Below are positions 5,626 to 64,000 of a stretch of DNA of 64,000 nt, piece after piece; position 1 is the first letter of the stretch, and every line of letters begins with the position of its first letter. Both the position numbers and the translations under genes were made by a program. The notes under the pieces are model-generated. The model was given only the letters and a program-made list of their open reading frames with translations, was not told where the DNA came from and searched no databases. This DNA is from Spirogloea muscicola (lineage: Eukaryota; Streptophyta; Zygnematophyceae; Spirogloeales; Spirogloeaceae): positions 366,988 through 430,987 of the forward strand of contig WELB01000018.1 of assembly GCA_009602725.1 (NCBI GenBank), in the 5' to 3' direction.

Positions 5626-5663
5626 TAGCCGTTGCGAGATTCGAAGCTACATCCGCTTACAGC

Positions 5664-34200: not shown

Positions 34201-34204
34201 AAAG

Positions 34205-34362: not shown

Positions 34363-34547
34363 CAGGCCCTCGATGCCCGTTCCGCGCCAGGCCCCTCGTG
34401 GCAAGGCAAGACCCCCGTGCCCACTCCCACGGTACAGATCGACCCGGCCTCTGCCTGCCTGCTGATCGTGGTGGCTGCCCCGCCCCGCCACGGGCGCGGC
34501 GGCGGCGAGCTCGCCGCCGCGGGCAGCCTCGGTGCGCCGCTGCGACC

Positions 34548-37500
34548 ATGGCGTCGCGCCGTCGCTCTCCCATCGGCTGGCCGGGTGAGCCTCGCCGTCG
34601 AGTGCGGCCTGCCGTGTGAGGATGCTGATGTCGGCTTGGGCCCGGGAGGCCAGCTCCGTCGTGCAAGCAGCCAGACTGCAGCTGCGCTCCAGTCGCCTGC
34701 TGCGTTGTCATGACCGTTGAAGCTTGGAGCGAGGAGCGAAGTGAATGCCACTGTGACCACCGACGCTTCACAGTGACAGCACACTCGCTGTTGCACACCT
34801 GCTGTAGCTGCTGCCTGGTGCATTGCCGCCGTAGAGCCGCTACGTCAGCTTCGTCCTTTTCCGCCGAGTGCCCAAGTCAATTGAGCTTCCCCTAACGTCT
34901 CTCAGGCCATGCAGGGGCTGGTGGTGGTGCTGCTGCAGGCCTGTACTTCCTAGTTGTTGTCTGCTGCACTCGTCCTGGAGCTGGTAACACAGTAACCCAA
35001 GCCACTCTGCGCCGGCAACTTGCCTTGTGGCTTGACTGAGCGTGCCGTGATGCTGCAGAGTCATCTGCCCTTCTGAGCTGCTGAGATGAAGCAAGGGCAT
35101 AGGATATGCCAGCCCATGCATGCTATTTTACAGACTGTGCTGCTACTTTGCGCAGCTGAAGCACCTGCACCTGTTTTAGCTTGTTCACAAATGTGTCCCC
35201 CTGCTTCCTGCCTGCTGCTACAGGCTTGCTCCCTTTCAGGATAGTGTCAATTGAGCCAGCACCAATGGACGACATGCCACAACCAGAACTCGATGGGTTG
35301 ACACCGATTACTGTGAGTCATTGCGCGTGTTTCACACAATCTATCCTGGAAGGGTGGTGTATCTGGGTAACAGATTCGCATCAGGGCATCTGCTTGCAGT
35401 AAACAGATGCGTAGCAACTGCTCCATTTCGAATGCCTGCAGCCAACTCAGTCATGATGAGTGCAGATGACCTTCACAAGGGCTGCCCTAGCACTGGGTGC
35501 CGACCATGGCAGTAGCGGAGGTCAACAGCCTTTTGTTCTTTCTGAGCCAATTCCTGGCAAATATCACTGGTCGGCCACATCCCTAACAACTTGCAGAATC
35601 AGTGCTGGGTCCATATATGTCTTCGTGTGATGCACGTATGTTGCTGCTCACCCAGAAGCTTCAGATTGTCAGATTCCTTTGTTCCATTGAAGCCACTTTT
35701 TCAACCTTGCGCGACTGAATGTCATGTCTTTGTCCACTCCTCAGAAACGCTTCACTCGCTTGATGCAGGGTCTCTACCTCAGTATACAGATTTGACCCTG
35801 ATGAAACCTGGCCTCCTGATCTGACCATCGCACTGAATCTTTGTCGTAACTACACCTCTTTTGACGGTTATCAGTGAGTTCCCTGCTCAGGCCTCGGATC
35901 CACATTGCTGCAGATTCTGAATACTTAGGCATGACTCGCCTGATCCAGCTTCTGTAAGAATGCGTGATGGCAATTGAATGGTCAGGCAACATGTGACTGC
36001 AGGCTTGATACTGTTGATGGCAACTGAATGGTCAGGCAACATGTGACTGCAGGCTGGATACCGTTGGATTGTGGGACCACAAGCTGATACTCCACACAAG
36101 GCCCTTGAATATCAGTGTGGCCACTGTTCTATCCACCAGTGCCACCAACTTCACAGTACGCAGTGCATGAAGATTTGTAAAACTGGGTGACGTACTGACT
36201 TGTATGACATACTTCATGTGTAGTATCATAACATATGCCCTCAACCTCCCTTGGCCAAGCTGCAACTCGATTGTGTGCATCATGCTGCTAGGATTCTACT
36301 TTTGCAGGGTGGCATGTGGTCAAGCCAGCAGTGCTACAGCGGCCATCATGAGGAACTGTCAGCCACTCATGAAGTGCCCCCTGATGGAAGGTATCATATC
36401 ATCCTCCCTCTGCATTGCAAGCGCAGCCCTCTCACGGAGACATCCCTTGAGTTCACAAGGAACACGTTAGTGTCCATCTCCCGCACTCAAGAGGCTGCAT
36501 GTGGTCTGGATGTTCCCCGGTGTTCTCCTGTCCTTTTATAATCAAATGGCTGCTTGTCTGCAGACTTGTCCTCACGTTCTCAAGCGCTGTCAACATTGCA
36601 CGGGTGCAGGAGGCTTTAAGGGTATGGTTTCAGCCCTCAGCCAAGAAGTGTGGCGTCTAGCTTCCACCTGCAATGACGTGACCGGAGCTGCTAGACTGTG
36701 CAGGTCTGGTAGCTTATGTAGCAATAGTTGCTCTGGAGGACCCCACCTATCTCTGATTTGTAGCAATGTCTACCACTGCCAGATATTGCCCACTTCTGGG
36801 GCTGCTACGAATCATTTTGTAATCAACGTCACAAGGTGGCAAGATCCGCCAGATTGGCTAGCTTCGCCATGGAAGACATACAGTATGATGCAGAAACAAT
36901 CCGGTCATGGGTGGTCCTCTCAGGACCATAGGCCCCATCAATATGAATGATTGGTTGTGATTGTGCAGCTGACATCAAGCTCTGTAAGAGGTGCATTACA
37001 GTGGGGGTCAAAATACATTCTGACCTTTGCAGAGGGTGCAAGGCTTCACCCACTCGGAGGACCAATGAGCACCCCCTTCTCTGTCAAGATCACAGGACTC
37101 TGCAGATTCTTTATCCCACTTCGTAAGGAGACAAAGCCGCTCTTTCATATCAGCAGCCATCACTCCTTTTCAATGAAGATGCGACATCATATGAGCAATT
37201 ACAACACATTTTTGTAAGTAGTAACTCAATCTGTTGCAATTGTCATGTCAGCTTCCATCTCAAATTGAGGGTGCACTGCATGTCATCATTGAATGGAACA
37301 TTTGCTGACATGTTTTGTCGGCATTGGTTTGTTTTTGCTAATTTTGCTATCGTGAGTGCATCAGCTATCGTCGCCTTGTGCTCAACCTCCCACGTGGACT
37401 ATGGACAAATGTGACAAGGAGGGCATTGAGGGAAGCTTTTGTTGTGCAAGAGGTGACGGGAAAGGGAACTCATGGCATACCACTGCCTATCAGCGTGTCA

Positions 37501-40500
37501 CGCTTATCAGCAAGCTCCCTTTGTATTCACACTCCGCTGGAATGCGGGCGCAAATATGTGAGCATGCATTGTTTGGTTGAGCTTAAGAGCTACTGTTTGT
37601 CCTGTATCCGTTTAACGCTCCCATCACCATTGAGCGTATGCCACACCAGTGTGTCAGCCTCACCAGTGTCATCGATGTTGCATCTTGACCAGACTCATCA
37701 TATTACTGCTATTGCATCCTAGCTGATCTTCGCATGATCTGCATGACAGATACTCTTTGTCCGAAACATGAGTCTTGTCGTAGATGGATATGGGCAGCCT
37801 TTGGAGAGTTCAAGTGTCATCTTCAACATGGGCAATGCATCTCTGCTCTTCACAGATGCATCCAATCCGTAGTTCGCCTGGAGCGGTTATGGTATTACAA
37901 GTCATCCTTGTTCTGCTACGATGATTGGCAGAGCACCAGATTGCCCCTGCTTACACAAGCCAGTATAGTATCATCAGATGTTGGCAGGCTGCTGTCAGAG
38001 CCCGGAGAGTCCTGACGTGATGTGCATTTGCAGTGGCAGAATATGGAACTTTGTTGGAGGAGGGAACAGGTTGGGATGGTACTTGGCCCATCTTCACCCA
38101 AGGGCCTGTAACGTCTTGTGCAACAAGGTCTGATCATGCCACTGCACAGAGCTGCGCTGTTGCTGCTACTCTGCCTTCACAGGGTCAATGCAGAATGTTT
38201 CAGAGCAATTCTTGCACTGAAGATTTTGCAGCAGCACCAAGGAGCAGCTAACATCTGACACATCTCTCAGCTTGCTGTCTGTGAGAGCTTGGAATATCGC
38301 GAGTGCCATAAGCACATTAAGGAAGTGGAGCCTAGACCCTGGCCTCCTTGAGTGGCTGACAACGGGAGCCTCAAGACGTCCTCCTGACTTTTCTGTGAGC
38401 ACCTTGTTGTTGAGCATCCTACTTTTGCTTTTCCTTCAGGGGTAATTTACCCTCAATCCTTCACCATAAGGTCACGTTGTATAATCTGCTCCTTTCTCTA
38501 CAGGATGCCTCTGAAAATGTCTTACAGTAGGAATTTGTTTGTCTTTTGGCAGGTTGACCTTCTTTCTGAGGAGGCAATGCAAATAACACCTGTCAATGCT
38601 ACTAGGCTCCTCGGGACTTCAGGGTGCCTATTCTTTCTCCAACCATTCTTTCTCCAACTACCATAGTGCAACTTCAGATGAATTCTCCTACAGTGATTCG
38701 TGCTGCAAGATGTCACCAATGCAGGACTTTGAAGGGACTACAAAGTACAGGCCCCAAAGTATATGAGCAATAATCACAGGGCATGTAACTGAGTCAAGTC
38801 ACACTTTACTTGGGCAGAGTCTCCACATTACAGATGCATTATAAGGAGGATGGATGAAGCATGTCATGACTGTTCTCACAGTTGCCAAGCGCAGGCTTTT
38901 TACGTTGCAGATGCTAGAGCAGGATGTAGAGGAGGAGACTTTGGTAGATAACAGACTTCGCACGATAGGGGAGACAGGCCTCGGGGTTTCATACTTCTTT
39001 GAGGACCTGAGTCTCCACTTTTGGATGGTTGATCTCAAGACAGGGAGCCCCATCGAGGGAGCGCAAGTTCACTTGATAAAGGTTAACAGCTGCTTTACAC
39101 ATCCAAGTCTCGGTGCCTCTTTACCCTTGATGCTGTCTGCTCTACTACATTATTACCAATTTACTATGCTGTAGCATGTACATCCCAGCTTGAAATGGGC
39201 TATGGTCAATACTATGCATAAGTAGAGAATGCCTTCGATCATATCTCCACATTATGTGAGCTAAAATGACCAGCACATAACCAATTCCTCTCTATTCTAT
39301 ACAGACACACGCCAAGTAGTGTACATAAGCACGCAGGTGTTTGGTCCCTAAGCTTGTCATTTTGATATGCTATCTACCTACATCATGCACAGTAATGGTG
39401 CCATGCGTTCATCACGGTTGCAGCACAATCCATGGGAGCGCGAGAGAGGGAAACACGTGTCCTTCACAGGGAGCACAGATGAGAAGGGGCTGGCATCGCT
39501 CAAGCTACTGGAGTGCTGCGAGTCGAGTTATCTTGCTTTCATTCTGCATGATACAAAGGCCATCCACCTGTCAATGCCATACCAGTTTCTTGACCAGCAT
39601 GACGAAACAGACCGTCATACAGCCGTTCTGATACTAGATCGACTCATGTACTATGCGAATGAGAGCCTGCAGGTGAAAGGGTATGTGCGCCAAGTGAAGC
39701 ATTCTGAGGTGCGAATGCATTGCTCTCTGATTTGATATGAGTATGCCCTGTACACAAACTGATATTGACTGCAGTATTCTGTTGGCATCTTGCATCTGTA
39801 ATTGCAGGATAGAGGTGTAAGTCAGACTCCCATGAGATTTGTGGCTAGGCACGCTATGACATGGTACTATGTGGCGGAGTCGACTTGACTGAGCAAGTGA
39901 GCTTTTACGTGTCTATGTTGTGATCCTCAGCTGCAGCTTTCATCCTTGACGGCGAATTTCTATCTAAGAGTGAGGGTATCAACCACCTTCAAAAAGCATC
40001 CAGTTGTTCTTGATCCAACTTATGGAAGCTTCTCAGCGGAGATTCACATACCAGCCGGCACCATGCCTGGCTCATACGAGGTGGAGCTTGTTATGACAAC
40101 CGCGGCAACGGCCATGGAGCCCTCCATGCAGCCTGCAATGTGGGGAGAGCCACATTATTCACGTGAAGATGTTGAAAAAGAGATGAGGGGTAGTGACTCT
40201 CAAGTAGATGACAGTCTTGGCTCCTCCTGGCGTACTGTAGCATACGAGCAGCGCGTGGGCATTATGACAGGAGCAACAGCAGTGCTGCAGGCAGGGCAAG
40301 ACCCAAGCTCGCTGTACGACCATCAATTGGTGACACTGACTTCAACAGATGTCTGTGTACTTGGAGAGCAAGCACCTGTTGTGACGCTTGACCTCGTTGC
40401 GGATCAAGTAGTGGCAAGGCCTGGAAAGTGTCTGAGTTTCACTGCAAAGATAAGAACCTACACAGGTGCACCTGTGGTGGGTGCTATGATTCAGATAAGT

Positions 40501-43500
40501 TGGGAAGTGACAACAGCTCCTAGCTCTCAAGATGACACTGCAATGGATGACAGGCCTTTGGTCGCTTTCATGGAAGGGGATTGTGCTGCTAAGGAAAGCG
40601 AAAACAAGACCTCAACCAACCCAGGTTCCACCTCCATGGCTTCCACGTCAGAGGGATTGGCCGTTTTCAGGCTGCATATAGGTAGCCAAGAGCCACAACA
40701 ATCTCTTTGGCTGACAGCAAAATTTGTGGGCCCTAGCAAGGAGATGGTTGTCAGGCAACTGTACATACCCATAGCCAAGAGCGATCTCAGTCTCAGACTC
40801 CTGCTCACACAGAGTCTCCCTTTGCCTGGGCAACACTTTGGTGAGAACACGAGCTATATGTCCGCTGCTCATAACTTAGAGGCAGGCAGAAGGTGCAATC
40901 CATGATATGGCATCACATGAAAGTGAAGAACGTCTGAACTTACATTGCATGTATGTTGCGTGACTGTCACCAAGGATGTCACACTCACCAGCATTGCTCA
41001 TTCACTACCTTCCATGCAGGTGTTCAAGTGCTTCTGGAAAGAGTGTTGAGAGATCGACCCCTATTTATTGAAGATTTGTACTCACCAGTGGTCAAACTGA
41101 CATTGCTGGTCAACCAGACAAGCAAGAATGGCATGTCGCAAATGAAGGAAGTCTCTACTTGCCTCACCAATGCAACAATTCTGGATCCAAGTAGCAAGCT
41201 ACAAGAATCTGGTCATCATCATGCAGGTTCCTTGTGCAGCTTCCAGATGCGCAAGATGGCCCATTATCTTCTGAAAGGGTGCCTCAATGATGCATCTGGC
41301 ATTGAAATATGCAGTGCCCTTCCACTAGGGTCTTCCAAGCAGGTGAATACATAATAATGAATAGGTGGGTAGTCTTGCATAGATGTTTTTACACCTTGAC
41401 ATTGACATATAAGGATGTTCTGAGTATTGTTGCTGCAGCACTTACAGTCACACAACCTTGTTTTCTGCAGCAATGGAAAGACTGCCCTTTGTCCAGGCAT
41501 GGGCGTTTCGTAAGCACACTGGACAAAGAGGAATACAGTACGGGAGACACAGCGGTGGTCTCCTTCGATACACCATATACGAATGCTTGGGCCCTGGCAA
41601 TGTGGGGACCAACTCATGGACGTCAGATGAAGACCTTCAAGCTGGATGGATTGCCAAGAACCTTAATTTCTATCATAATTGGAGATGAGTGTAGTAAAGG
41701 CTGTGCACTGCAAATTGTAAGTACTTGCAGTCTTCTATTGGTGGCTAAGTTGCAGAAATGGTCTTGGCTGACCTTTGGCTTGAAGATTACATGATCTCTG
41801 ATAAGCTGTGCTTGCTCCTGTGTGTGGTAGCTTGTAGCAGTTCCTCGACAAGTATCCACACTGTTATCAAAGAGATTGGCAGCTATCCCTTCCAGTGCAA
41901 CGTTCGACATCAATGCTCCCACCACCCACAGCATGTTCTTGATACTGCCCATCCAGCAGATAGATGGAGCATTGGAAATTGACTTGGTTGGTCCTTGAGA
42001 CTCTGGTCATATTGCACAGGCACACGGTTTGTTGCTAAATGAGAAGCATGATTGTTCCGCTTTAGTAAACAGGTCCTTATACCAGATTGCAGGAAATATT
42101 TAAAATTTGACCAGTAGCTTTATGCTCGTGCAAGCATGCGCAGGCTGTTCCTGAAGCAGCACTTCCGTTGGACACTGAAGTGACAGTGGACATTGGCATA
42201 TCTTGCCGTGGCTTGCCAGAATCCGATGTTGAACTGACGGTTGTCGCCGTGGACAAAGCCACTTTGGGAATGGCACAATTCCCCTTGGCATCATTCAAGG
42301 AGAAATTCGACACAGCAAGTGTCAGCAACGACGGAATGCATGGAGCGCTGGTGGTGTCGACACAGGAACGCCTGCTGGCGCCTAAGTACCTCCAGACTGT
42401 CGTCAAGAAATTTGAGCAGCTGAAGAAACTTGAACCTGGGCTTCGGTATGTACACAGCTTGTTACCTCGTCAAATAGGTCCTACTACTGCTTGAATCTTG
42501 CAGATGATTTGTGTCTACTCTGAATCAACCACCGAAACCTGCTAATGCTGGGGACCTAGCTGTGCTCAATGAAAAGAAGGCTTACAGAAAGGAGCAATTG
42601 ATACTAACTTGTCTGGAGACTTGGAATTGTCTTTCACAGTATTCAAGACCTCTACAGAGAAAAGAATCCGTTGGAGCCCTTCAGAGCTGATTCCTGCCAC
42701 AAGTAATTCATTGACATGGATGTAAACGAGGCCTTGATGCAATTTACTTCCAGCCTTTCTGATGAGACAGGTTTGGTCTGAATTGAAATCTATAAGGCGA
42801 ATCTGCACTGGATTGGCTTGCCTGGGCTGTTATGAGTGGCTGCCACAGTAGGTTTGACTTTCAGCACATGACGGGCATGGCTTAAGGACAGAGTAGTAGA
42901 CACCTGTCACCAAAAGCTCAACCTTGCCTTGTTTCAATATGAGCAGCTGACTTGACGAGGAGCCCCGATACTTTCAGTGTAGCTGATGCAATTTTCAAGC
43001 GTGAGAAGCCTGCCAAGTGGGCAGCGGTGAAGACGTGTCGTCTCACCAATGCCATCACACTCGTTCAGGACGAGCATGATGATGTCCTCTTCAGAAGGAG
43101 AACACACTTTAATCCCACGCTACTTTTTGCAACCCAGGTCGTTTCTGACAAGCTTGGCAAGGTAAGCAAGGCATGACCAATATTCCAGCGTGCGTCAATT
43201 TGCTGCACACTTGTGATCTAGCAATTGCTCTGGGAGGCAAAAACATATCAACGATCTGGCCATCAATAATACGTAAATAGCTCACTCTTTGATTGCAGGT
43301 GGCTCTTACGTTCCAGCTACCTGCCAATGTGCGTTCACTAGCTATTCATGCCTATGCAGCTACCAAAGACCACAGGTTTGCTTCTGCAGAGGCACAGATG
43401 GTAGTGAGAAGATCAATATTGGTTCGAGCTTCTGCCCCCAAATTGGTCAGGCTTGGAGACACATTTGAGGCAGGAGTCATTGTCAGATTGGACTGCTATA

Positions 43501-46500
43501 CACCAAAGAAGGGTATCAATGTGTCCATAGTGTTGACATCAAGCGGGGTAAGCACTGTGGGTGACACTACAACAATAAACATAATGGGGTCAGCAACAGA
43601 AGAGGTAATCAACTGCAGTACTTGTACAGTTGCAGAGCCCCATATCTGAAGTTACTCGGAAAGCACAAGGAAGGCTTAGTATGTCCTCAAAATCTTATCT
43701 GTTGACATGCACTTGACATGTAGAGACTGATTTGTGTGAATATGAGACTCAGAGCAAGGCTTCAACAGTTGTGTTGAGAAGCCCATGCTTGCAGAGCTGG
43801 CTAGCTACTCATCACTTCAGTCCTCAACGTTTGACAACCATTGGCTGCCTCATGCAGGCCTTGTTCCATTTCTCCGCACATGCTGTTGGTGTCGCTGTTT
43901 TACACTTCAAGGCTGTTGTGGGGAACGAGGTCGAGGATCAAGTCGAAGCAAAAGTGCAGGTGGAAGCTTTGCATGAGATTGTGATGCTCTCGTCCAGCTT
44001 CGTACTGTCAGCTGGCGAGGAAGGCGTGGAGATCCCACCAGCTCTTCCAGACTGTGAAAAGCTGATTATCTGAGCAGGGTAGTATTCGCCTGACCCAGAT
44101 ATCACCTGAGTTGAGAGGCAATTGAGCCGTTCGATTAGGTGTTTACATTGGTGTACTCCATAATTCGGGAAGAATACATTACAGCAGCATAATCATGTTG
44201 ATGTGACAACCTCTTTTCTTTCAGGATTGGGAGGCAGCCAGCCATAGACGCAATCGCCCAGATCTTAGATATACACGCCCCTGTTCAAGATTGCATCTCC
44301 CATGAGTGGCTCATCGCTAAGCTGGCAGCTTCACTGTCTACGTCTGAGTACCTTCAAGGAAGTTCTCTGCTTCAGCTTGATGTACCTGAAGAAACATCCA
44401 GCAACCTCAGTGACTTGGTTGCAAGTGGTACGTACTTACATGCCTTCTTGTTGCTACAAGCATAACTTGGTCGCGATGGGTATCGTCCTGCACTCCAAGA
44501 GCCGAAGCAACTTGGCTGGAATGGTTCTGGCAAACATGTGACTTCCTTAATGTGCTGCAAATTGCTCCCTTTAACCAGGTTCGCTCTGTTGGAGCTCCAG
44601 TCCTTGTGATGTGGGCTTTCAAGCTGTTGCCCTCTTCTTGCTGAGGCTGTTGGAACAATTGAACTGCCCCTTGCTGAGCCCGTCGCTCATTGAGTACCTG
44701 CAACGGAAGTGGCACGAGGGTCTCGTCCAGAGGTTGGCATCCTGTCACGAAGTCCAAGGCACCATGCGGATACCGCTTCTAGCTGAGGCGCGTCTTGCCC
44801 TCGGCACGTCCTGGGTGTCCAGAAGGCGCAGAGACAGAAGTCTCCGGAGAGATCTTGGCATGAGCCGTCTTCTTCAGCATGTGTCCCAGCTCTCAAATTT
44901 CCACAAAGCAGCACTAGGTCTTACTTTGTCAGCGTCCTTGGACAACTTCTACTCATCACTTTGGGCTTCAGAGCTAGCAAATATCATCACATCATTGCGA
45001 GCTGCCGTGAGAATCCAAGGCAGCACTGCATACATTACCGAGGGGTCCAACCAGCCTGCCTCCAGATCTGCAAATGCCATGGCGCTACTACTTTTCACCA
45101 AGGCAAATCTGTTATTTGTGCTTCGAGCTCCGTGCATGTTGAAGTCATGCACTGAACCCACCAAGTTCGAAGCATCCTACAGTAGCTGCTTAGTGCTGCT
45201 CTCTCTGATCAGGGTCTCTGAACAGCGTTTGTGATGTTGTCAATCCGGTGATTGCTTACTCAGGAAGTCCAATAAGTTGATTTCGTATCCAATCTTCTTT
45301 TCATTCTTATGGAAGACATTGTTCCTGTGGCTCAGAATGACTGCTCAAGTTGAGAGCCACCTAACGAACACTTTTTTGCTGCAGCTCAATGGCACGGGAG
45401 TCACAGAAGAGAAACTGGCAAATCACCTTTCTGCATATAGCTCCTTGGGAGGCCAGAATCTGGGAATTTACTCCGTCAGCCCTAGGGAGGCTGCCTTGTG
45501 CATTATAGCACTTGCGCAGTACGACCGATCGAAGGGCAGTGTGAACAACGATCTTCAGCTTGAGGCTGCTGTTGGGAAGAAGAAGTTACTGACGGCCTCC
45601 TTCAGGCTTGGAGGGAGCTCACGTCTGGTACACAGATCTTTCTCCTTTGAGGAGGTTGGCTCAGCCAGGCCAAGCATAAAATATCAGGCCACTGGCAAGG
45701 GAGAGGTATGATCCCACTGTGCCGCTTCCTGTACATTGATGGAATGTTCAAGCTGACATCATCATGCCACCTTTTAAGCCCCTGCAGAGTCAGCATCATT
45801 CATGCCTACTGTGCGTGCAGGTATCTGTCACAACCACAGTCAGCTATGTGCCGCTGAGAGTCATTACCTTCCCTCTTTTCCGTGGGCTGGATGTAAGACG
45901 GGTGATTCAGAGGGTAGATGTCTCAACAGGTGAAACCCTTTTAGAGGATCTTACCTGGGTGAGTGAAGTAGCAGCAGTTCTCCAAGAAGCTCTAAGAACA
46001 CTCCATCTGGTTGAAGCATTGTAGTCATGCTTAAGGTGCACAGCTTGTCAGACACCCAAGATGTGCTGCTTCTCCTCAGGTGTCCGCCAGCCCTCATAGC
46101 AGTGCATCAACCACCGGATTCGTCCATGACTGCAGGTGGAGGTCGGCTCAGTTGTACAAGTCACTCTCCAAATGACTACCCTTGACGATATTGAAGGTCT
46201 GCAGCTGGTCGACAAGCTGCCTGGAGGTTGTGAACCTCTTTCCTATCATGGTGCCTCTGACGCACCAGACCGCCTTTCTGGCTCCTATACTAAGTAAGTG
46301 CACACATGTCCTACTTAATCTGCAGCAGATGTGGAAGTCGCTCTTAACAGATCTTGTAGAGAATTTTCTTTCCAGCGTGCAAGATGGATGTCTTCAATTC
46401 ATACAGCAATTCGATGGCTACCTACATTCACGAGCTTCTGAGCACTCAATCAACGGGGTATGCAATAAGTAAGCTCATGCCCATACGTCAAGCTTATGCA

Positions 46501-53090: not shown

Positions 53091-53162
53091 GGTGCAGATA
53101 TGTGCAGACGTTGTGAGGATGCATTTTGTAGAGAGCTACCGAGTGTGCTATCATCCTAGGTC

Positions 53163-53840
53163 TACAGAGAAAGTCCATAAAGAACAGGGGCTGGCAAAGC
53201 CAGCCCAAAAAGAATGGACAATGTCCAAAGCCAAAGAAAGAAGAAGAAAGTGCTCGCCCATTGAGAATAGGGGCTGGAACAACCAGCCCGAAAAAGAATG
53301 AACAGAGTACGAGAAGGGGGCCAGGGGAAGCGCTAAGTAACAGAAACAAAGCTGCTACGAGACACTCAGTAACCCCTGCTAAGCAGCCGCAGATCAGAGA
53401 TGCTGGGCTCCTGGAAGTGGGTCCCCTGGCCAGAGCCAGAGGCAGCAGCGAGGGCTCTGCCGGCACGAAGGTGCAGCGCCCGGGCCATGGACCTCTGCAG
53501 CGAGAAGGCCAGGCACATTCGATACACTTGCGCCAGCGACCCGGCTGCAGGGAAGTCAACCGGCTCCCCATGGAAGCGCCGGGCGATGGTGTGGCGGGCG
53601 AGCTGGGTGAGCAGCTCGAGCCACCGAGCGCCCAGCGCCCCATGTGTGTCGATGGCCAACGGGAAGAACTCGTCTTCCCGCGGATGATCCGCGTACTTCA
53701 GCTCTTTGGCCCGAGCAGCGCAGGCGACCGCATACCCAGCCGTGGTGGCACATTTGGCTGGGTGTGAGCGGTCATAGGCATCAGTAGTCACCACGTCCAG
53801 GAGAAGACGTGGCCCGCCGGCCTGTCGGGTGGCCACCAGG
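53163..53840 (-). mobile_element. LINE 3' fragment with two tail hairpins
   Basis: The minus-strand frame 53836-53366 encodes RLLLDVVTTD, then EDEFFPLAIDTHGALGARWL, SLAQVYRMCLAFSLQRSMAR and SISDLRLLSRGY-stop. The 3' UTR (AGCGCTTCC...GTACTCTGTTCATTC) leads to hairpin GGGCTGG-TTGTT-CCAGCCCC at about 53266 and a second hairpin at about 53187-53210 (GGGCTGGCTTTGCCAGCCCC). The two are in tandem, like the plus-strand array at 50.4-50.9 kb. Confidence 0.85.
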
Positions 53841-53959
53841 TCTACACGCCTGGCATGGAGACCGTCGGCCGAGGAGTCGGAAAAAGACTACACTACAAAA
53901 CACAAGACAATGCAGAGGGAAGCTCAGTACCTGCGAGTGAGCAACATCAGGTCCGAGTA

Positions 53960-54345
53960 GCTCGCTCGGAAAGAAGAAGAAGTGGCACTCCCAATGGGGG
54001 CAAGGGCTGCGAAAAGCCAGCCCAAAAAGAATTCACAAAGGATCAGAGGGGCCTAAGAGCGGTGAGCAGCTACAAAGGGGCCTGAGGATGCAATGGTAAA
54101 ACAGGGGGAGGATGGATCACTCAATAAGTACGAGTGAGGAGCCTCAGATCCGACAGACTAGCTGCCGGGAAGCTATCACCCTGACGAAAGCCAGAGCCCG
54201 CAGCGAGAGCACGGCCAGCTCGCAGATGCAGAGCGTGGGCCATGGACCGCTGCAGGGATACAGAGAGGCGCATCCGATATACCTGAGCCCACGAGCCCGC
54301 GGCGTTGAAGTCGGCTGGCTCGCCGCGTCTGCGGGACACAGCCCA
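53960..54345 (-). mobile_element. LINE 3' fragment with tail
   Basis: Minus strand: SRRRGEPADFNAAGSWAQVY ... LSDLRLLTRTY-stop at 54121, then a tail with hairpin GGGCTGGCTTTTCGCAGCCC (about 54006-54030) and ATTGGGAGTGCCACTTC. It is almost the same sequence as 50070-50440, so both come from a recent active subfamily. Confidence 0.85.
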
Positions 54346-54437
54346 CGCTAAAAGAAGAACAGGGCGGAGGGCTGTGAAAAGCCAGTCCAGAACGGACCAA
54401 GGTCCTCGATGCCCGTTCCGCGCCAGGCCCCTCCTCA

Positions 54438-54600
54438 CTCGTACTTATTGAGTGATCCATCCTCCCCCTGTTTTACCATTGCATCCTCAGGCCCCTTTGT
54501 AGCTGCTCACCGCTCTTAGGCCCCTCTGAACCTTTGTGCATTCTTTTTGGGCTGGCTTTCGCAGCCTTGCCCCCATTGGGAGTGCCACTTCTTTCAGTCC
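54438..54600 (+). mobile_element. LINE tail insertion upstream of A2M copy 2
   Basis: Begins CTCACTCGTACTTATTGAGT (last codons plus stop of the LINE) and ends at the GGGAGTGCCACTTCTTTC block after hairpin GGGCTGGCTTTCGCAGCC. A2M copy 1 lacks it: there CAGGCCCCTCGTGGCAAGGC is continuous (about 34389-34408). With the minus-strand copy at 53960-54150 it forms an inverted pair. Confidence 0.85.
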
Positions 54601-54780
54601 TCCTGGAAAAGGCAAGACCCCCTCGACCACCCCCACGATACAGACCGACCCGGCCGCTGCCTGCCTCCTGATCGTGGTGGCTGCCCCGCCCCGCCACGGG
54701 CGCGGCGGCCGCGAGCTCGCCGCCGCTCGCCGCTGCAGCCTCGGTGCGCCGCTGCGCTCGCCGCTGTGCGGCAGACGACC

Positions 54781-55885
54781 ATGGCGTCGCGCCGTCGTTC
54801 TCCCACCGGCTGGCCGGGTGAGCCCCATTGCCAAGTGCGGCCTGCCGTGTGAGAGCGCTCGTTTCGCCTTGGGCCCGGGAGGCCAGCTCCGTCGTGCAAG
54901 CAGCCGGACTGCAGCTGCGCTCCAGTCGCCTGCTGCATTGTCAATGAAATCCCGTTGGAGCTTAGAGCGAGGAGCGAAGTGAATGCCACTGTGAACACCG
55001 ACGCTCCGCAGTGACAGCACACTCGCTGTTGCGCACTTGCTGTAGACGCTGCCTGGTGTATTGCCGCCATAGAGCCGCTACGTCAGTCCTTTTCCGCCGA
55101 GTGCTTAAGTTGGCAATTGAGCTTCTCCTGACTTCTCGTGGGCCATGCAGGGGCTGGTGGCGCTGCTGCTGCAGGCCTGTACTTTCTGATTGTTGTCAGC
55201 TGCACTCGTCCTGGAGCTGGTAACGCAGTGACCCAAGCGTCTCTGCGTCGACAGAAGCCTTGTAGCTTGACTGAGCGTGCCGTGGTGCTGCAGAGTCATC
55301 TGCCCTTCTGAGCTGCTGAAATGAAGCAAGGGCATAGGATATGCCAGCCCATGCACGCTGCTTTACAGACTGTGTTGCTACTTTGCTCAGCTGAAGCACC
55401 TGCAGCTGTTTCAGCCTGTTCTCAAGTGTGTCCCCCTGCCTCCTGCCTGCTGCTACAGGCTTGCTCCCTTTCAGGATACTGTCAATTGAGCCAGCACCAA
55501 TGAAGGACATGTCACAACCTGAACTCGATGGGTTGACACCGATTACTGTGAGTCATTGCGCGTGTTTCACACAATTATCCTGGAAGGGTAGTGTATCTTG
55601 CTGAGGCTCTTATGATGAGATTGCCATATTCTCATGTCAAGCAGGAGTTCTCCAGTACTCTCAGCTCAATGGTTGAGGTGACAGATTCGTATCAGGTCAT
55701 CTGTTTGCAGCAAACAGATGCGTAGCACCTGCTCCATTTCGAATGCCTGCAGCCAACTCAGTCATGATGAGTGCAGATGACCTTCACAAGGGCTGCCCTA
55801 GCACTGGGTGCCGACCATGGCAGTAGCGGAGGTCAACAACCTTTTGTTCTTTCTGAGCCAATTCCTGGCAAATACCACTGGTCAG

Positions 55886-55945
<60 letters not shown>

Positions 55946-58900
55946 CCCTCCCAACTTGCAGCATCAGTGCTGGGTCCACAGATGTCTTCGTGTGGTGCAC
56001 GTATGTTGCTGCTGGCCGAGATGCTTCAGATTGTCAGATTCCTTTGTACGATCAAAGCCACTTTTGCAACCTTGCGACTGACTGTCATGTCTTTGTCCAC
56101 TCCTCAGAATCACTTTACCCGCTTGATGCAGGGTCTCTACCTCAGTATACAGATTTGACCCTGATGAAACCTGGCCTCCTGATCTGACCATCGCACTGAA
56201 TCTTTGTCGTAACTACACCTCTTTTGACGGTTATGAGTGAGTGAACTGCTCAGGCCTCGGATCCACTTTGCTGCAAATTCTGAGTACTTAGGCATGACTC
56301 ACCTGATCTAGCTTCTGTGAGAATGCGTGATGGCAACTGAATGGTCAGGCAACATGTTACTGCAGGCTGGATACTGTTGGGTTGTGGGACCACAAGCTGA
56401 TACTTCACACAAGGCCCTTGGATATCAGTGTGGCCACTGTTCTATCCACCAGTGCCACCAACTTCACAGTATGCAGTGCATGAAGAATCAAATTGGTTGA
56501 CATACTGACTTGTATGACGTATTATATGTGTGATATATGTAACATATGCCCTCAACCTCCGTGCGCCAAGCTGCACCTCGATTGTGTGCATCGTGCTGCT
56601 CCCCTTCTGCAGGGTGGCATGTGGTCAAGCCAGCAATGCCACAACGGCCATCATGAGGAAGTGTCAGCCACTCATGAAGTGCCCCCTGATGGAAGGTATC
56701 AAGTCATCCTGCCTCTGCCTTGCAAGCGCAGCCCTCTCGCGGCAACATCCCTTGACTTCACAAGGATCAAGTTTGTGTCCATCTCCCGCACTCAAGAGAT
56801 TGCATTTGGTCTGGATTGTTCCCCAACGTTCTCCTGTCTTTCAATAATCGATTGGCTGCTTTGCTGCAGACTTGTCCTCACGTTCTCAAGCGCTGTCAAC
56901 ATTGCACGGGTGCAGGAGGCCTTAAGGGTATGGAATCAGCCCTCAGCCAAGAAGTGAGGCGTCTAGGTTCCACCTGCAATGACGTGACCAGAGCTGCTAG
57001 ATTGTGCAGGTCTGGTAACTTACGTAACAGTAGTTGCTCTGGAAGGGCCCCACCTGTTCTGATTTGCAGCAATATCGACCACTGCGCTCATGCCAGATAT
57101 CGGCCACTTCTGGGGCTGCTACGAATCATTTTGTAATCAACGTCACAAGGTGGCAAGATCCGCCAGATTGGCTAGCTTCGCCATGGCAGACATACAGAAT
57201 GTTGCAGAGAGAAGCCGATTATGGGTGGTCCTCTCAGGACCATTGGCCCCATCAATATGAAAATGGGGCTGTGATTGTGCAGCTGACATCAAGCTCTGTA
57301 AAAGGTGCATTACAGTGGGGGTCAGAGTACATTCTGACCTTTGCAGAGGGTGCAAGGCTTCACCCACTCGGAGGACCAATGAGCACCCCCTTTACTGTCA
57401 AGATCACAGGACTCTGCAGATTCTTTATCCCGCTTCCAAAGGAGACAAGGCAGCTCAGTGATATCAGCGGCCGTTACTCGTTTTCAAGGAAGATAAGACG
57501 ACGTCTGAGCGGTTACAACACAGTCTTGTAAGGAGTAACTCAGTCTGTCGCAAATTTTATGTCAGCTTAAATTTTACACTGAGTGTGGCACTGCATGTCA
57601 TCGGTTATGGGAACGTTTGCTGACATGGTAGTCTGCATTGGGGTTGATTTGCTGATTTTGCTATATTGTGAGTGCATCAGCTATCGTCGCCTTGTGCTCA
57701 ACCTCCCACATGGACTAGGGACAGCTGTGACAAGGAGGGCATTGAGGGAAGCTTTTGTTGTGCAAGAAGTGACAGGAAAGGGGACTCATGGCATGCCACT
57801 GCCTATCAACGTGTCACGCTTATCAGCAGGCTCCCTCTGTATTCACACTCCGTTGGAATGCGGGCGCAAATATGTGAGCATGAATTGTCTGATTGACCCA
57901 AAGAGCTTATCTTTGTCCAGTACTCCTGTCTAAGGCGTCCATCACCATTGAGCGAATGCCACACCAGCGTGTGTGCCACACCAGTGTCATTGATGTTGCA
58001 TCTTAATCAAACTCATCATACTACTGCTATTGCATCCTAGCTGATCTTCGGCTGATCTGCATGACAGAAACTCTTCGTCCGAAACACGAGCCTTGTAGTA
58101 GATGGATACGGGCAACCTTTGGAGAGTTCAAGTATCATCTTCAACATGGGCAATGCATCTCGGCTCTTCAGAGATGCTGCATTCAATCCGCTTTTCTCCT
58201 GGGGCGGTTATGGTATTACGAGTCATCTTTGTCCTGCTACGATGATTGGCAGAGCACCAGATTGCCCCCTGCTTACAGAAGCCAGTATAGTATCATCAGA
58301 TGTTGGCGGGCTGCTGTCAGAACCCGGAGAGTCCTGACGTGATGTGCATTTGCAGTGGCAGAACAGGGAGCTTTGTTGGAGGAGGGAACAGGTTGGGATG
58401 GTACTTGGCCCATCTGCACCCAAAGGCCTGAAGAGTTTCGTGCAACAAGGTCTCTTCATGCCACTAGGAGCTGCGCTGTTGCTGCTACTGTGCCTTCACA
58501 GGGTCTATGCAGAAACCATTAGAGCAATTCTTGGACTAAAAATTTCAGCAGCATCAAGGAGCAGCTACCATCTGACACATATCCCAGCTTGCTGTCTGTG
58601 AGAGCTTGGAATATCGAGAGTAACATAAGCCCACTAAGGAAGTGGAGCCTAGATCCTGGCCCTCTTGACTGGCACACGATGGGAGCCTCAAGACGTCCTC
58701 CTGAACTGTCTGTGAGCACCTTCTTGTTGAGCATCTTAATTTTGCTTTTCTTTTAGGGGCAATCCACCCTCAACCATTCGACATAAGGTCACGTTTCATG
58801 TAAATTTGCTCCTTTCTTTACAGAATGCCTCTGGAAATGTCTTACAGTGGCTGTTTGTCTTTTGGCAGGTTGACCTCATGTCTGAGGAGGCAATGCAAAT

Positions 58901-61900
58901 AACACCTGACAATGCTAGTAGGCTCCTCGGGACTTCAGGGTGCCTTCTCTTCCTCCAACTACTGCTGCTACCATTGTGCAACATCATAGAAACATCTTCA
59001 CAACACCCGTGCTGCAAGATGTTACCAATGCAGGACTTTGAAGGGACTACAAAGCACAGGCCCCAAAAATCATTCGAGCAATAACTACAGGGCATGTACC
59101 TGAATCAAGTCACACTATACTTGGGCAAGCTCTCCACATTACAGATGCATCATGAGGAGGATGGATAACGCATGTCATGACTATTCTCACAGTTGTCTGA
59201 CTATTCTCACAGTTGTCAAGTGCAGGCTTTTTACATTGCAAATGCTAGAGCAGGACATAGAGTTGGAGAGTATGAAAGATAACAGACTTCGCACGATAGG
59301 GGAGACAGGCCTTGGGGCTTCATACTTCCTTGAGGATTGGGACGTTCACTTTTGGGTGGTTGATCTCAAGACAGGGAGCCCCGTTAGGGGAGCGCAAGTC
59401 CACTTAATAAAGGTCAATAGCTGCCTTACACATCCAAGCCTCGGTGCCTCTTTACCCTTAACGCTGTCTACTCTACCACATGATTATCATTTCATAATGC
59501 TGTAGCATGTATAACCCAACTTGAGATTGGGCTATAGCCAAGACTATGTTTACCTAGAGAATGCCGTCAATCATTAATTCCACATTGTGTGAGGCCTGAT
59601 GACCAGCAAACAGTCAACTGCTCTCTACTTTAAACAGAAACCCGCCAAGGAGTGCAAATGAGCAGGTAGTGCTTTTCCCTAAGCTTGTCATTCTAATATG
59701 CAACCTACCTACATCAAGCACAGTGATGGTTCCATGGGTTCATAACGGTTGCAGCACAATCCGTGGAATTACAACAGAGGAAAGAACATGTCCACAAGGA
59801 GCACAGATGAGGAGGGGCTGGCAACCTTCAAGCTACCGGAGTGCTCCGAGTCGATTTATCTTGCTTACATTCTGCATGATATGAAGGCCATCACCCTATC
59901 AATCCACCTATCAATGCCGTACCAGTTTCTTGACCAGCATAACGAAACAGGCCATCATACAGCCGTTCTGATACCAGATCGACGCACGTACTATGCGAAT
60001 GAGAGCTTAATGGTGAAAGGGTATGTGCGCCAAGTGAAGCATTCTGAGGTGCGATTGCAATAGCCTCTGATTACGCATGAGTAGGCCCTGTACATCGATT
60101 GATATTATCTGCAGTACTCTGTTGGTAACTTGCATCTGCAATTGCAGGATGGTGGTGTAAGTCAGCGTCCATGAGTTTGTGGCTAGGCAAGCTATGACAT
60201 TGTACTATGCGGCGGAGTCGACTTGACTGAGCAATTTTGCAAGTGAGCTTTTACGTGTCTGTGTTGTGATCCTCAGCTGCAGCTTTCATCCTTGACGGCG
60301 AATTTGTATCTAAGAGTGAGGGTATCAACCACCTTCAAAAAGCATCCAGTTGTTCTTGATCCAACTTATGGAAGCTTCTCAGCGGAGATGCACATACCAG
60401 CTGGCACCATGCCTGGCTCATACGAGGTGGAGCTTGTTATGACAACCGCGGCAACGGCCATGGAGCCCTCCATGCAGCCTGCAACGCCAGAGCCACAATA
60501 TGTACGTGAAGATGTTGAAGAAGAGATGAGGGGTAGTGATTCTCAAGAAGATGACAGTCTTCGCTCCTCCTGGCGTACTGTAGCATATGAGCAGCGCATG
60601 GGCAATATGACAGGAGCAACAGCAGTGCTGCAGGCAGCGGAAGACTCAAGCTTGCTTGATGAACATCTATTGGTGACACTGACCACAACAGTATTCCATG
60701 TACTTGAAGAGCAAGCACCTGTTGTGACGCTTGACCTCGTTGCGGATCAAGTTGTGGCAATGCCTGGAGAGTGTCGGAGTTTCACTGCAAAGATAAGGAC
60801 CTACACAGGTGCACCTGTGGCGGGTGCAATGATCCAAGTTAGTTGGGAAGTGACAACAGCTCCTAGCTCCCAACAAGACACTGCAATGGAGGACAGGCCT
60901 TTGATCTTTTTCATGGAAGGGGATTGTGCTGCTGAGGAAAGTGAAAACAAGACCTCAGCCAACCCTGGTTCCACCTCCATTGCTTCCACGGCAGAGGGAT
61001 TGGCCGTCTTCAGGCTGCACATAGTTAGCCAAGAGTTCACACAACAATATGTTTGGCTGGCAGCAAAAGTTGTGGGCCCTAGTGGGGAGATGGTTTTCAG
61101 GCAACTGTACATACCCGTAGCCAAGAGCGAACTCACTCTCAACCTACTGCTCACACAGAGTTTCCCTTTGCCTGGGCAACACTTTGGTGAGAACACAAGC
61201 TATATATCCGCTGGTCATGGCTTAGAGGGAGGCCGTAGGTGCAATCCATGATATGGCATCACATGACTATGCAGAACGTCTGGACGTTCATTTTATGTAT
61301 GATGCAGGCATGTCACCAAGGATGCCACAATCACCAGCATTGCTCACTCACTACCCTCCATGCAGGTGTTCAAGTGCTTTTAAGAAGAGCATTGACAGAT
61401 CGACCCCTAATGGTTGAAGATGTATACTCACCAGTGGTTATATTGACGTTGCTGGTCAATCGGACAAGCAAGAATGGCATGTCGCAAATGAAGGAAGTCT
61501 CTACTTGCCTCACCAATGCAACGACTCTGGATCCAAGTAGCAAGCTACAAAAATCTGGTCATCATTATGCAGGTTCCTTGTGCAGCTTTCAGATGCGCAA
61601 GATGGCCCAGTATCTTCTGAGAGGTTGCCTCAATGATGCATCTGGCGTTGAGATATGCAGTGCCCTTCAACTAGGGTCTTCCAAGCAGGTGAATACATAG
61701 TAATGAGTGGGTGGGTAATCTAGCATAGATGTTATTACACCTTGATATTGACATAAAAGGATATGTTCTGGCTTACTAGCTGCAGCACTTACAGTCACAC
61801 ATCCTTCCTATTGCAGCAATGGAAAGACTGCCCTTTGTCCAGGCATGGCCGTTTCATAAGCACACTGGACAAAGAGGAATACAGTATGGGAGACACAGCG

Positions 61901-64000
61901 GTGGTCTCCTTCGATACACCATACATAAATGCTTGGGCCCTGGCAATGTGGGGACCAACGCATGGACGTCAGATGAAGACCTTCCAGCTGCATGGATTTC
62001 CAAGAACCTCAATTTCTATCTCAATTGGAGATGAGTGCAGAAAAGGCTGTGCACTGCAGATTGTAAGTTCTGGCAGCCTTCTATCGCTTGCTAAGTTGCA
62101 GAAACGGGCTTGCCTGACCTCTGGCTTGAAGATGACATGATCTCTGATAAGCTGTGCTTGCTCCTGTGTGTGGTAGCTTGTAGCAGTTCCTCGACAAAAA
62201 TCCACACTATTATCCAACAGATTGGCAACTATCCCTTCCAGTGCAACATTTGACATCAATGCTCCCACCACCCACAGCATGTTCTTGATACTACCCATCC
62301 GGCAGATAGATGGAGCGTTGGAGATCGACTTGGTTAGTCCTTGTGACTCTGGTCATGTTGCACAGGCACGGTTTGATACGAAACGAGAAGCATGATAATT
62401 CCGCTCCAGTGAACAAGTCCTTATTCCAAACTGCAGAGATATCTTAGATAATTAACCAGTAGCTTTTTGGTGCAAGCATGCGCAGTCTGTTCCTGAAGGA
62501 GCACTTCTGCCGGACACTGCAGTGACAGTGGACATTGGCATAGCTTGCCGTGGCCTACCAGAATCTGATGTTGAACTGACGGTTGTCGCTGTGGACAAAG
62601 CCACTTTGGGAACGGCACAATTCCCCTTGGCATCATTTCAGGAGATACTTGACACAGCAAGTGTCAGCAACGGCGGAATGTATGAAGCGCTGGTGGTGTC
62701 AACACAGGAACACCTGCTGGCGCCTAAGTATCTCCAGACTGTCGTCCAGAAATTTGAGCAGCTGAAGAAACTTGAACCTGGGCTTGTGTATGTGCACAGC
62801 TTGTTACCTCGTCAAATAGGGCCTACTACTGCGTGGGATTGCAGATGATTTGTGTCTACTCTGAAGTAATCGTCAAAAACCTGCTGATGCTGGGGACCTA
62901 GCTGTGCTCAATGAAAAGAAGGCTTACAGGAAGGAGTAATTGATACTAACTTTGAGACTTGGACTTGTCTTTCACAGTGTTCAAGACCTCTGCCGTGGAA
63001 ACAATCTGTTGGAACCCTTCAGAGCTAATTTCTACGACAAGAGAGTCATTGACATGGATGTAAACGAGGCCTTGATGCAATTTACTTCCAGCCTTTCTGA
63101 CGAGACAGGTTTGGTCTGAACTGAAATCTAAAATCGGCGAATCTGCACTGCTTTGGCGTGCCTGGGCTGTTTTGAGTGGCTGCCACTATAAATTTGACTT
63201 TCACCACATGACGGGTATGGCTCAAAGGACAGAGTGGTAGACATTTGTCACCAAAAGCTCAACCTTGCCTTGTTTCAATAGGAGCAGCTGACTTGACGAG
63301 GAGCCGCGATACTTTCAGTGTAGCTGCCACAGCGGTGAAGACGTATCCTCTCACCGATGCCATCACACTCGTTCAGGACGGGCATGATGATGTCCTCTTC
63401 AGAAGGAGAACACACTTCAATCCCACGCTACTCTTTGCAACCCAGGTCGTTTCTGACAAGCTTGGCAAGGTAAGCAAGGCATGACCAATATTCCAGCGTG
63501 CGTCAATTTGCTGCACACATGTGGTCTAGCAATTGCTCTGGAAGGCACAAACAAATCAACGATCTGGCAATCAATAACCTATATATAGCTCACTCTTCGA
63601 TTGCAGGTGGCTGTCACCTTCCAGCTACCTGCCAATGTGCGTTCGCTAGCTATTCATGCCTATGCAGCTACCAAAGACCACAGGTTTGCTTCTGCAGAGG
63701 CACAGTTGGTCGTGAGAAGATCAATCTCACTTCGAGCTTCTGCCCCCAAACTGGTCAGGCTTGGAGACGTTTTTGAGGCAGGAGTAAATGTTAGATTGGA
63801 CAATTATACACCACAGAAAGGTATTAACGTGTCCATAGTGTTGACAACGAGCGGGGTAAGCACTGTGGGTGATACTCCAACAATCAAGTACATCCTGGGG
63901 CCAGCAACAGGAGAGGTAATAGTTGCAGTGCTTGTCTAGGTGCACAGCCCCATCCGAAGTTGCACGAAGAGCACAAATGCTTTTAGTATGTCCTCATAAT
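54781..64000 (+). CDS. Bacterial-type alpha-2-macroglobulin, copy 2 (3' partial)
   Basis: Tandem paralogue of the gene at 34.5-47.3 kb with the same exon order, cut by the window edge. Landmarks: MASRRRSPTGWPG (54781), MQGLVALLLQA (about 55147), ILSIEPAPMKDMSQPELDGL (55470), YRFDPDETWPPDLTIALNLC (56146), LVLTFSSAVNIARVQEALRV (56870), WGSEYILTFAEGARLHPLGG (57320), VVDLKTGSPVRGAQVHLIK (59350), RRTYYANESLMVKGYVRQ (59980), FSAEMHIPAGTMPGSYEVEL (60380), LDKEEYSMGDTAVVSFDTPY (61865), VELTVVAVDKATLGTAQFPL (62570), FNPTLLFATQVVSDKLGK (63417) and VRLGDVFEAGVNVRLDNYTP (63758). Substitutions are scattered and the main exons stay open, so both genes look functional. It differs from copy 1 by a CA repeat, a tail insertion upstream and a small in-frame difference near TPEPQYVREDVEEEM. 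The thioester region lies outside the window. Confidence 0.83.
55886..55944. repeat. (CA)n microsatellite, about 29 units, in an A2M copy 2 intron
   Basis: Uninterrupted CA dinucleotides directly after the exon SGGQQPFVLSEPIPGKYH. At the same place copy 1 has only GGTCGGCCACATCCCTAAC, so the array expanded after the gene duplication. Confidence 0.95.
59178..59219 (+). repeat. 20-bp tandem duplication in A2M copy 2
   Basis: TGACTATTCTCACAGTTGTC occurs twice in a row. Copy 1 has one unit (about 38868-38885). It sits at the splice acceptor before the exon CRLFTLQMLEQD. Confidence 0.85.

What the first reader, a model, noticed from the sequence alone, without database searches (positions are those of the whole stretch)
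34548..64000. Tandem pair of bacterial-type alpha-2-macroglobulins in a green-lineage genome, one with EGF-like module and membrane anchor
Both genes encode long MG-domain proteins. The motifs (VTD/VVDLKTGSPV-type domain, DR..YYANES..VKG, VVAVDKATL, LP.GCEP, AGTYTYSY) resemble bacterial A2M lipoproteins more than animal A2M. Copy 1 replaces the bacterial lipobox/periplasmic design with a C-terminal EGF-like domain and a transmembrane helix with a basic cytosolic tail, so it should be a type I surface protein. I know of no characterised algal equivalent. A bacterial origin followed by gain of many introns is my inference.
Basis: partly seen in the sequence, partly recalled or inferred. Interest (0 to 1): 0.85.

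Follow-up and report, generated by a model that had tools for sequence, protein, structure and literature searches.

The report
Bacterial-type macroglobulin pair in eukaryotic DNA
A eukaryotic, possibly algal, genome carries two neighbouring, intron-rich copies of a large protein of the protease-trap family best known from bacteria; one copy ends in an EGF-like module and a likely membrane anchor, has lost the family's reactive bond, and may be damaged by a premature stop.

Summary
The genes are real. Copy 1, spliced by hand (16 exons, 38911-47271), hits Pfam bMG3 (weak), MG2, A2M, full-length bMG10 and EGF_2 in order and matches a bacterial A2M profile collinearly to its last position (257.6 bits; 200 shuffles and the reversal at most 3.3). 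Copy 2 (exons 1-8, then the window ends) keeps frame and nearly all splice sites; dN/dS 0.58. 'Bacterial-type A2M' stands; so do the EGF and a modest membrane helix in copy 1.

Corrections: (1) LPGGCEP is bMG10, not a thioester; copy 1 has no CxEQ and the protective Met-Tyr is replaced, so any trapping is thioester-independent. (2) In my model an in-frame TGA (44071-44073) interrupts copy 1: it may be decaying. (3) Copy 2's C-terminus is outside the window. (4) Lineage, bacterial donor and intron gain are untested. (5) A second tandem pair nearby (TFIIA) has the same identity (87.6%), so unmerged haplotypes are possible. Bacterial-type A2M sequence was already reported in a Dictyostelium protein.

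The parts
38911..39081 (+). copy 1 exon 1 of the model (bMG3 start); true 5' limit probably upstream, N-terminal exons unresolved
39424..39708 (+). copy 1 exon 2 (bMG3 end, MG2 start: DRLMYYANESLQVKGYVR)
39937..40840 (+). copy 1 exon 3 (MG2 end and following MG region)
   Evidence: AlphaFold of this exon with 2 rows was uninformative, pLDDT 29
41020..41342 (+). copy 1 exon 4
   Evidence: bacterial profile positions 901-982 span exons 4-5
41471..41716 (+). copy 1 exon 5 (LDKEEYSTGDTAVVSF)
42144..42445 (+). copy 1 exon 6 (VVAVDKATL and first part of the bait-like segment)
42978..43161 (+). copy 1 exon 7 (bait-like segment end and A2M domain start); net 33 bases longer than in copy 2
43299..43604 (+). 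copy 1 exon 8 (A2M domain PF00207)
43858..44078 (+). copy 1 exon 9, with in-frame TGA at 44071-44073
44225..44427 (+). copy 1 exon 10, start of the TED; place of the bacterial C-x-E-Q thioester, here without C-x-E-Q
44579..45102 (+). copy 1 exon 11 (TED), GC donor
45385..45705 (+). copy 1 exon 12 (TED end)
45821..45958 (+). copy 1 exon 13
46136..46293 (+). copy 1 exon 14 (bMG10, LPGGCEP)
46502..46789 (+). copy 1 exon 15 (bMG10 end, start of the EGF module)
46968..47271 (+). copy 1 exon 16 (rest of EGF, likely membrane helix, basic tail, stop)
46773..47037 (+). EGF-like module CPHGCSGHGVCNGLTNKCICDKFFQGADC (split by the last intron)
   Evidence: EGF_2 3.3e-5, above cut-off
47137..47193 (+). hydrophobic stretch HFMYFSSGVVVMLAAYLFY, likely transmembrane helix
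   Evidence: Kyte-Doolittle maximum 1.51, GES 1.66
59242..63915 (+). copy 2 exons 1-8 (59242-59412, 59755-60048, 60283-61186, 61366-61688, 61817-62062, 62486-62787, 63319-63469, 63607-63915); the rest lies beyond the window
   Evidence: bacterial profile 145.4 bits
36969..38642 (+). candidate N-terminal coding segments of copy 1 (36969-37121, 37369-37557, 37756-37899, 38553-38642), unproved; in-frame TAG at 37870-37872, where copy 2 is open
   Evidence: no significant profile hit
34394..64000 (+). direct duplication: unit starting at 34394 (copy 1) and 54599 (copy 2), with repeats and retroelement-like ORFs (so called by eye) between

Best explanation
A direct duplication of an intron-rich eukaryotic gene for a bacterial-type alpha-2-macroglobulin (COG2373/YfhM-like). 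The protein is a chain of MG domains, a lysine/arginine-rich bait-like segment, a TED without the thioester, a bacterial-type C-terminal MG10 domain, then (copy 1) an EGF-like module, a membrane helix and a short basic tail. Most likely working: a surface-tethered, thioester-independent macroglobulin, in which cleavage of the bait-like segment changes the shape and hampers or senses an extracellular protease without a covalent link. Shown: domains, order, loss in copy 1 of the thioester motif and of the protective Met-Tyr, constraint on exons 1-8 averaged over both copies. Inferred: secretion, surface location, bait function. Copy 1 as assembled may no longer make the full protein (in-frame TGA); copy 2 may be the working one.
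For: Pfam hits in family order; collinear match to the bacterial profile in 4 segments reaching its end, 200 shuffles and the reversal at most 3.3 bits; exon, splice-site and frame conservation and dN/dS 0.58, Fisher p 1.1e-4, introns diverging like synonymous sites (JC 0.141 versus dS 0.146); no C-x-E-Q in spliced copy 1 nor in three frames of 43801-44800; Met-Tyr replaced by Lys-Gly in bMG10, residues described as thioester-protecting in PMC4498604 (passages seen); model of TED exon 11 mostly helical, pLDDT 69.5, its four best Foldseek matches, none significant, are complement C5; EGF and hydrophobic stretch.
Against: In-frame TGA at 44071-44073 and possibly a TAG at 37870-37872 in copy 1; no signal peptide shown; no N-terminal exon found by profile; NxS/T sequons only mildly above shuffles (7 versus 4.8; 9 versus 3.8); the bait exons are not the fastest evolving between copies (exons 6-7 pN 0.077 and 0.053, exons 1-2 0.130 and 0.116); no phmmer hit in the PDB at E <= 0.01; membrane helix only modestly hydrophobic; Foldseek lists transcobalamin and a lanthipeptide synthetase at ranks 5 and 6 with higher TM-scores (0.62, 0.68) than the C5 chains (0.31-0.49), so it shows a general helical fold, not membership; all 16 rows of the bacterial profile were found by likeness to copy 1, so its score is somewhat flattered. 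Protease inhibition was not tested.
Confidence: 0.45

Rival explanations
1. Copy 1 is a pseudogene of a once working gene (and perhaps the pair is on its way out).
For: In-frame TGA 44071-44073 at the phase-consistent canonical junction of exons 9 and 10; possible TAG 37870-37872 where copy 2 is open; dN/dS 0.58 is only moderate.
Against: Exons 10-16 after the TGA are otherwise open with consistent splice phases; net exon length differences between the copies are multiples of 3; a non-consensus GC donor before the TGA, or a sequence error, would also explain it.
Confidence: 0.35
2. The 'tandem pair' is one locus: two diverged haplotypes or subgenomes laid end to end by the assembler.
For: A second direct duplication in the same window (5354-9025 and 9387-13097, 87.6% identical in its longer part) has the same divergence as the A2M pair (87.7%), and a single N stands at 9386, exactly before its second copy.
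Against: No N lies between the A2M copies; upstream of 34394 and 54599 the self-comparison lists no long collinear match, only inverted or scattered repeats; about 14% neutral divergence would be very high for alleles (recalled).
Confidence: 0.25
3. A membrane-anchored structural or adhesion protein built from MG domains, with no protease-trap function.
For: Thioester motif and Met-Tyr lost; EGF-like module and anchor.
Against: Overall A2M architecture incl. bMG10 is kept, exons 1-8 under some constraint.
Confidence: 0.3
4. Bacterial contamination or a chance match of low-complexity ORFs.
For: The only relatives found are bacterial, but only prokaryotic, plasmid and viral collections could be searched.
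Against: 15 introns; eukaryotic genes in the same window; shuffled and reversed sequence scores 3.3 bits at most.
Confidence: 0.02

Closest known systems
Bacterial alpha-2-macroglobulin, E. coli YfhM (ECAM) / Salmonella SaA2M
   Same: bMG3 (weak in copy 1), MG2, A2M domain, TED and bMG10 in the same order; collinear match to a bacterial profile to its last position, on which YfhM, not among its rows, scores 605.9 bits.
   Different: No C-x-E-Q, no protective Met-Tyr; 15 introns; C-terminal EGF and hydrophobic stretch; N-terminus and lipobox not seen.
Bacterial A2Ms without C-x-E-Q (here Rhizobium L002, L015, L017, L019 and Eremiobacterota L016; MagD/YfaS-type recalled)
   Same: C-x-E-Q absent (5 of 22 bacterial rows).
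   Different: Rhizobium L002 keeps Ser-Thr-Glu-Gln and Met-Tyr; the window's copy 1 keeps neither; EGF and anchor.
Dictyostelium DdiCPRas2 (PMC2430557, passages seen)
   Same: A eukaryotic protein with a region homologous to bacterial COG2373 A2Ms.
   Different: Carries an inserted cpRAS GTPase domain; no EGF/anchor mentioned in the passages seen.
A2Ms of Mamiellales green algae (PMC9156758, passages and one methods section seen)
   Same: A2M family in green algae, judged authentic by those authors.
   Different: Found with an animal CD109-like query and thought by them to come from metazoa; the window's copy 1 has the bacterial bMG10 ending.
CD109 (membrane-linked animal A2M)
   Same: A2M fold tied to a membrane at its C-terminus (recalled).
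   Different: Best bacterial-profile stretch of CD109 chains ends at position 1683 of 1849, before bMG10; CD109 is GPI-linked and bears a thioester (recalled).
CAGE complex (PMC12485934 preprint, abstract and passages seen)
   Same: Large protein with beta-sandwich domains in microbes incl. green algae; two of its domains have A2M as top structural hit.
   Different: [quoted passage not shown] the window's copy 1 has sequence-level A2M, MG2 and bMG10 hits.

Membership tests
A2M superfamily | A2M domain (PF00207) and MG2 domain above gathering score | tested here: met
   36.4 bits (cut-off 21) and 36.7 (32.8)
A2M superfamily, inhibitory thioester class | C-x-E-Q thioester at the TED | tested here: not met
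   Copy 1: no C-x-E-Q in the spliced protein nor in three frames of 43801-44800; 17 of 22 bacterial rows have it. Copy 2 ends before this exon: untested
Bacterial A2M (COG2373/YfhM type) | bMG10 as C-terminal MG domain | tested here: met
   Copy 1: 6.9e-16, profile 1-131 of 131. Copy 2: beyond the window
Bacterial A2M (COG2373/YfhM type) | bMG3 before MG2 | tested here: inconclusive
   7.5e-4, 19.9 bits, below cut-off 34.9; supported by the collinear profile match from position 465
Bacterial A2M (COG2373/YfhM type) | Lipobox at the N-terminus | tested here: inconclusive
   N-terminal exons not resolved
Animal A2M / C3 / CD109 | A2M_recep or TED_complement domains | tested here: not met
   No such match listed at E <= 1 for copy 1
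Animal A2M / C3 / CD109 | Place inside the animal clade in a tree | not testable with these tools
   No collection of animal sequences to fetch from; the tree holds bacteria and the two copies only
Type I membrane protein | Signal peptide plus C-terminal transmembrane helix | tested here: inconclusive
   Helix 1.51 Kyte-Doolittle, 1.66 GES; signal peptide not shown
EGF-like domain proteins | EGF_2 above gathering score | tested here: met
   24.6 bits, cut-off 22.1

The most novel reading that the evidence does not exclude
A eukaryotic, possibly algal, lineage has turned a bacterial-type macroglobulin into a duplicated family of surface receptors: EGF module and anchor gained, covalent chemistry discarded, so that cleavage of the bait-like segment by a foreign protease is sensed or blocked at the cell surface. 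It would be an independent counterpart of the animal TEP/CD109 branch.
Probability: 0.15. Interest if true: 0.72.

Novelty: new variant of a known kind. Interest (0 to 1): 0.45.

Why it matters
A2Ms are the stock from which complement and animal protease traps derive (recalled). The bacterial form is said to be thought of as a horizontal gift from animals (PMC9156758, passage seen); the reverse or old inheritance are also conceivable. An intron-rich, bacterial-type member in a eukaryote, with a membrane-anchored architecture and no thioester, is a data point for that question and a candidate for extracellular protease control outside animals. Its weight depends on whether the gene is intact and on its lineage, which remain open.

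Tried and rejected
LPGGCEP as thioester: rejected, it lies in bMG10. Avoiding the TGA by another canonical donor/acceptor pair around exons 9 and 10: by my reading of the printed frames, not an exhaustive script, the pairs I tried either break the phase or cut off the conserved end of exon 9; a non-consensus GC donor remains possible. Selenocysteine reading: no Rfam hit of any family in the window at gathering scores, so no SECIS support. Resolving N-terminal exons by profile: fragments upstream of exon 1 gave E 0.09 at best, and a home-made spliced profile search found only parts of exons 1 and 2 in copy 1 and part of exon 1 in copy 2. phmmer against the PDB found nothing at E <= 0.01 and an early one-exon search one irrelevant hit at E 0.97. 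Two scans of viral contigs: 5 and 75 pattern matches, 0 relatives, so no support for a virus as carrier. Phage tblastn with one exon gave three hits at E 0.7. NCBIfam gave one irrelevant hit at E 0.12. The tree (quick method, long-branch warnings) does not resolve a donor; one bacterial row (L008, 929 aa) was left out of it for length. AlphaFold of exon 3 failed (pLDDT 29). Paper searches for algal, oomycete or protist A2Ms; no description of a bacterial-type A2M with EGF and anchor was seen in these listings, and the library holds open-licence papers only.
Full report
What was checked. The window is not in the prokaryote collection. Fragments of eukaryotic genes surround the finding: NUBP/Nbp35 near 0.2-1.8 kb, TFIIA alpha/beta twice, both below cut-off, Sec10 and, near its cut-off, pectinesterase. 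With 15 introns in the gene itself, this is a eukaryotic locus. Nothing found here proves the green lineage; the pectinesterase fits it but does not settle it.

Gene structure. Comparing the two halves gives 87.7% identity over 7,058 aligned columns in the main block, introns included. From three-frame displays I joined 16 exons of copy 1: 15 introns, 14 GT-AG and one GC-AG, all in phase. Of the 8 exons that copy 2 shows before the window ends, 8 of 8 donors and 7 of 8 acceptors are kept, and net length differences are 9, 33 and 3 bases in three exons and 0 in five. The acceptor of exon 1 is not kept in copy 2, so the real exon 1 probably starts upstream. Over 892 codons dS is 0.146, dN 0.0845 and dN/dS 0.58 (15 codons with gaps skipped), while introns diverge by 0.141; the excess of synonymous change is significant (Fisher p 1.1e-4). 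This averages both copies' histories and cannot say that both work today.

Domains. Single exons already hit A2M (9.5e-8), bMG10 (2.5e-5, just below cut-off) and EGF_2. The spliced protein, split at the in-frame stop, gives bMG3 7.5e-4 and A2M_BRD 0.027 (both below cut-off), MG2 5.5e-9, A2M 4.9e-9, bMG10 6.9e-16 over its whole length and EGF_2 3.3e-5. A profile of 16 bacterial proteins scores copy 1 at 257.6 bits in four collinear segments from position 465 to the end at 1857. Of 200 shuffles and the reversal, 62 of 201 got any listed score, 3.3 bits at most; copy 2 scores 145.4, and E. coli YfhM, which is not in the profile, 605.9. All 16 profile rows were found by likeness to copy 1, so the score is somewhat flattered; the Pfam hits are not. 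In the PDB the best stretch of the human A2M, A2ML1, CD109, TEP1 and complement chains shown ends at position 1730 of 1849 or earlier, short of bMG10 (60 of 77 rows shown, second stretches not shown). The bacterial type is therefore well supported. An AlphaFold model of TED exon 11 with 11 bacterial rows is helical with a hairpin (pLDDT 69.5); its four best Foldseek matches are complement C5 chains (E 0.3-0.9), followed by transcobalamin and a lanthipeptide synthetase with higher TM-scores; none is significant.

The thioester is missing. 17 of 22 bacterial rows bear C-x-E-Q, 5 do not. In copy 1 there is no C-x-E-Q, in the spliced protein or in three frames of 43801-44800; the only two C-x-x-Q lie elsewhere, before the A2M domain. 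The region reads IHAPVQDCISHEW, and three alignments place it somewhat differently (by eye, by MAFFT, by hmmalign), but none gives a Cys three residues before a Gln. The Met-Tyr of the C-terminal domain, which PMC4498604 describes as part of the thioester's protective pocket (passages), is Lys-Gly. Covalent capture is thus very unlikely for copy 1; copy 2 ends before this exon and is untested.

The stop. In exon 9 a TGA stands at 44071-44073, five bases before the end of the exon in my model. The donor and acceptor phases on both sides agree when it is read through. It would cut copy 1 before the TED, EGF and anchor. A second possible stop (TAG 37870-37872) lies in an N-terminal segment that I could not prove to be an exon; copy 2 is open there. 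Sequence error, an odd GC donor or true decay are all possible. No Rfam family, hence no SECIS, was found in the window at gathering scores.

C-terminus. The last two exons join to an EGF-like module CPHGCSGHGVCNGLTNKCICDKFFQGADC, followed after 33 residues by a hydrophobic stretch (Kyte-Doolittle 1.51, GES 1.66, the best of the modelled protein) and a tail with 8 K/R and no D/E. This is a plausible type I anchor. No signal peptide could be shown, as the N-terminal exons remain unresolved.

The bait-like segment, from the start of VDKATL to the start of RRRTHF, is 104 residues in copy 1 and 93 in copy 2. It differs by a net 11 residues but is not the fastest evolving part by substitutions: exons 6-7 have pN 0.077 and 0.053, exons 1-2 have 0.130 and 0.116. 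Bait function rests on position alone.

Origin. One scan of the GTDB-species genome collection gave 20 relatives among 158 pattern matches, 21-33% identical in their best segments, and plasmids gave 7 records. In a tree of 24 rows (quick method, with long-branch warnings) the two copies form one clade on a branch of 3 changes per column in an unresolved fork. With no animal or protist rows, neither the direction of transfer nor intron gain can be tested. Dictyostelium DdiCPRas2 already shows COG2373-like sequence in a eukaryote (PMC2430557, passages), so the class is not new to eukaryotes. A2Ms of Mamiellales are reported as authentic but of likely metazoan origin (PMC9156758).

Tandem or assembly. 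A second direct duplication (5354-9025 and 9387-13097) has 87.6% identity in its longer part, with a single N at 9386. The equal divergence hints that diverged haplotypes may have been laid side by side, though no N lies between the A2M copies and no long collinear match between their upstream flanks is listed.

Verdict. A genuine, bacterial-type A2M gene pair in a eukaryotic genome, with an unusual EGF-anchor ending and no thioester in copy 1: a new variant of a known kind. Integrity of copy 1, lineage, origin and function are open.

Noticed in passing
5354-9025 and 9387-13097: A second direct duplication (87.6% over 2,985 columns, then 82%) with weak TFIIA alpha/beta fragments in both copies; a single N stands at 9386, just before the second copy.
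   Followed up: partly
32857-34662 (-) and 48616-49938 (+): Long ORFs that look retroelement-like by eye, without Pfam hits at E <= 0.001, with inverted partial repeats between and around the A2M copies.
   Followed up: partly
35965-36066: A 50-base unit present twice in copy 1 and once in copy 2, upstream of the gene.
   Followed up: no
38136-38219 (copy 1) and the matching place in copy 2: An ATG-led hydrophobic peptide (MPLHRAALLLLLCLHRVNAE) that looks like a signal peptide, in a region I could not place in the gene model.
   Followed up: partly
L002, L015, L016, L017, L019: Bacterial A2Ms (Rhizobium, Eremiobacterota) without C-x-E-Q: L002 and L017 read SerThrGluGln, L016 has neither Cys nor Gln there; L015 and L019 were not looked at residue by residue.
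   Followed up: partly
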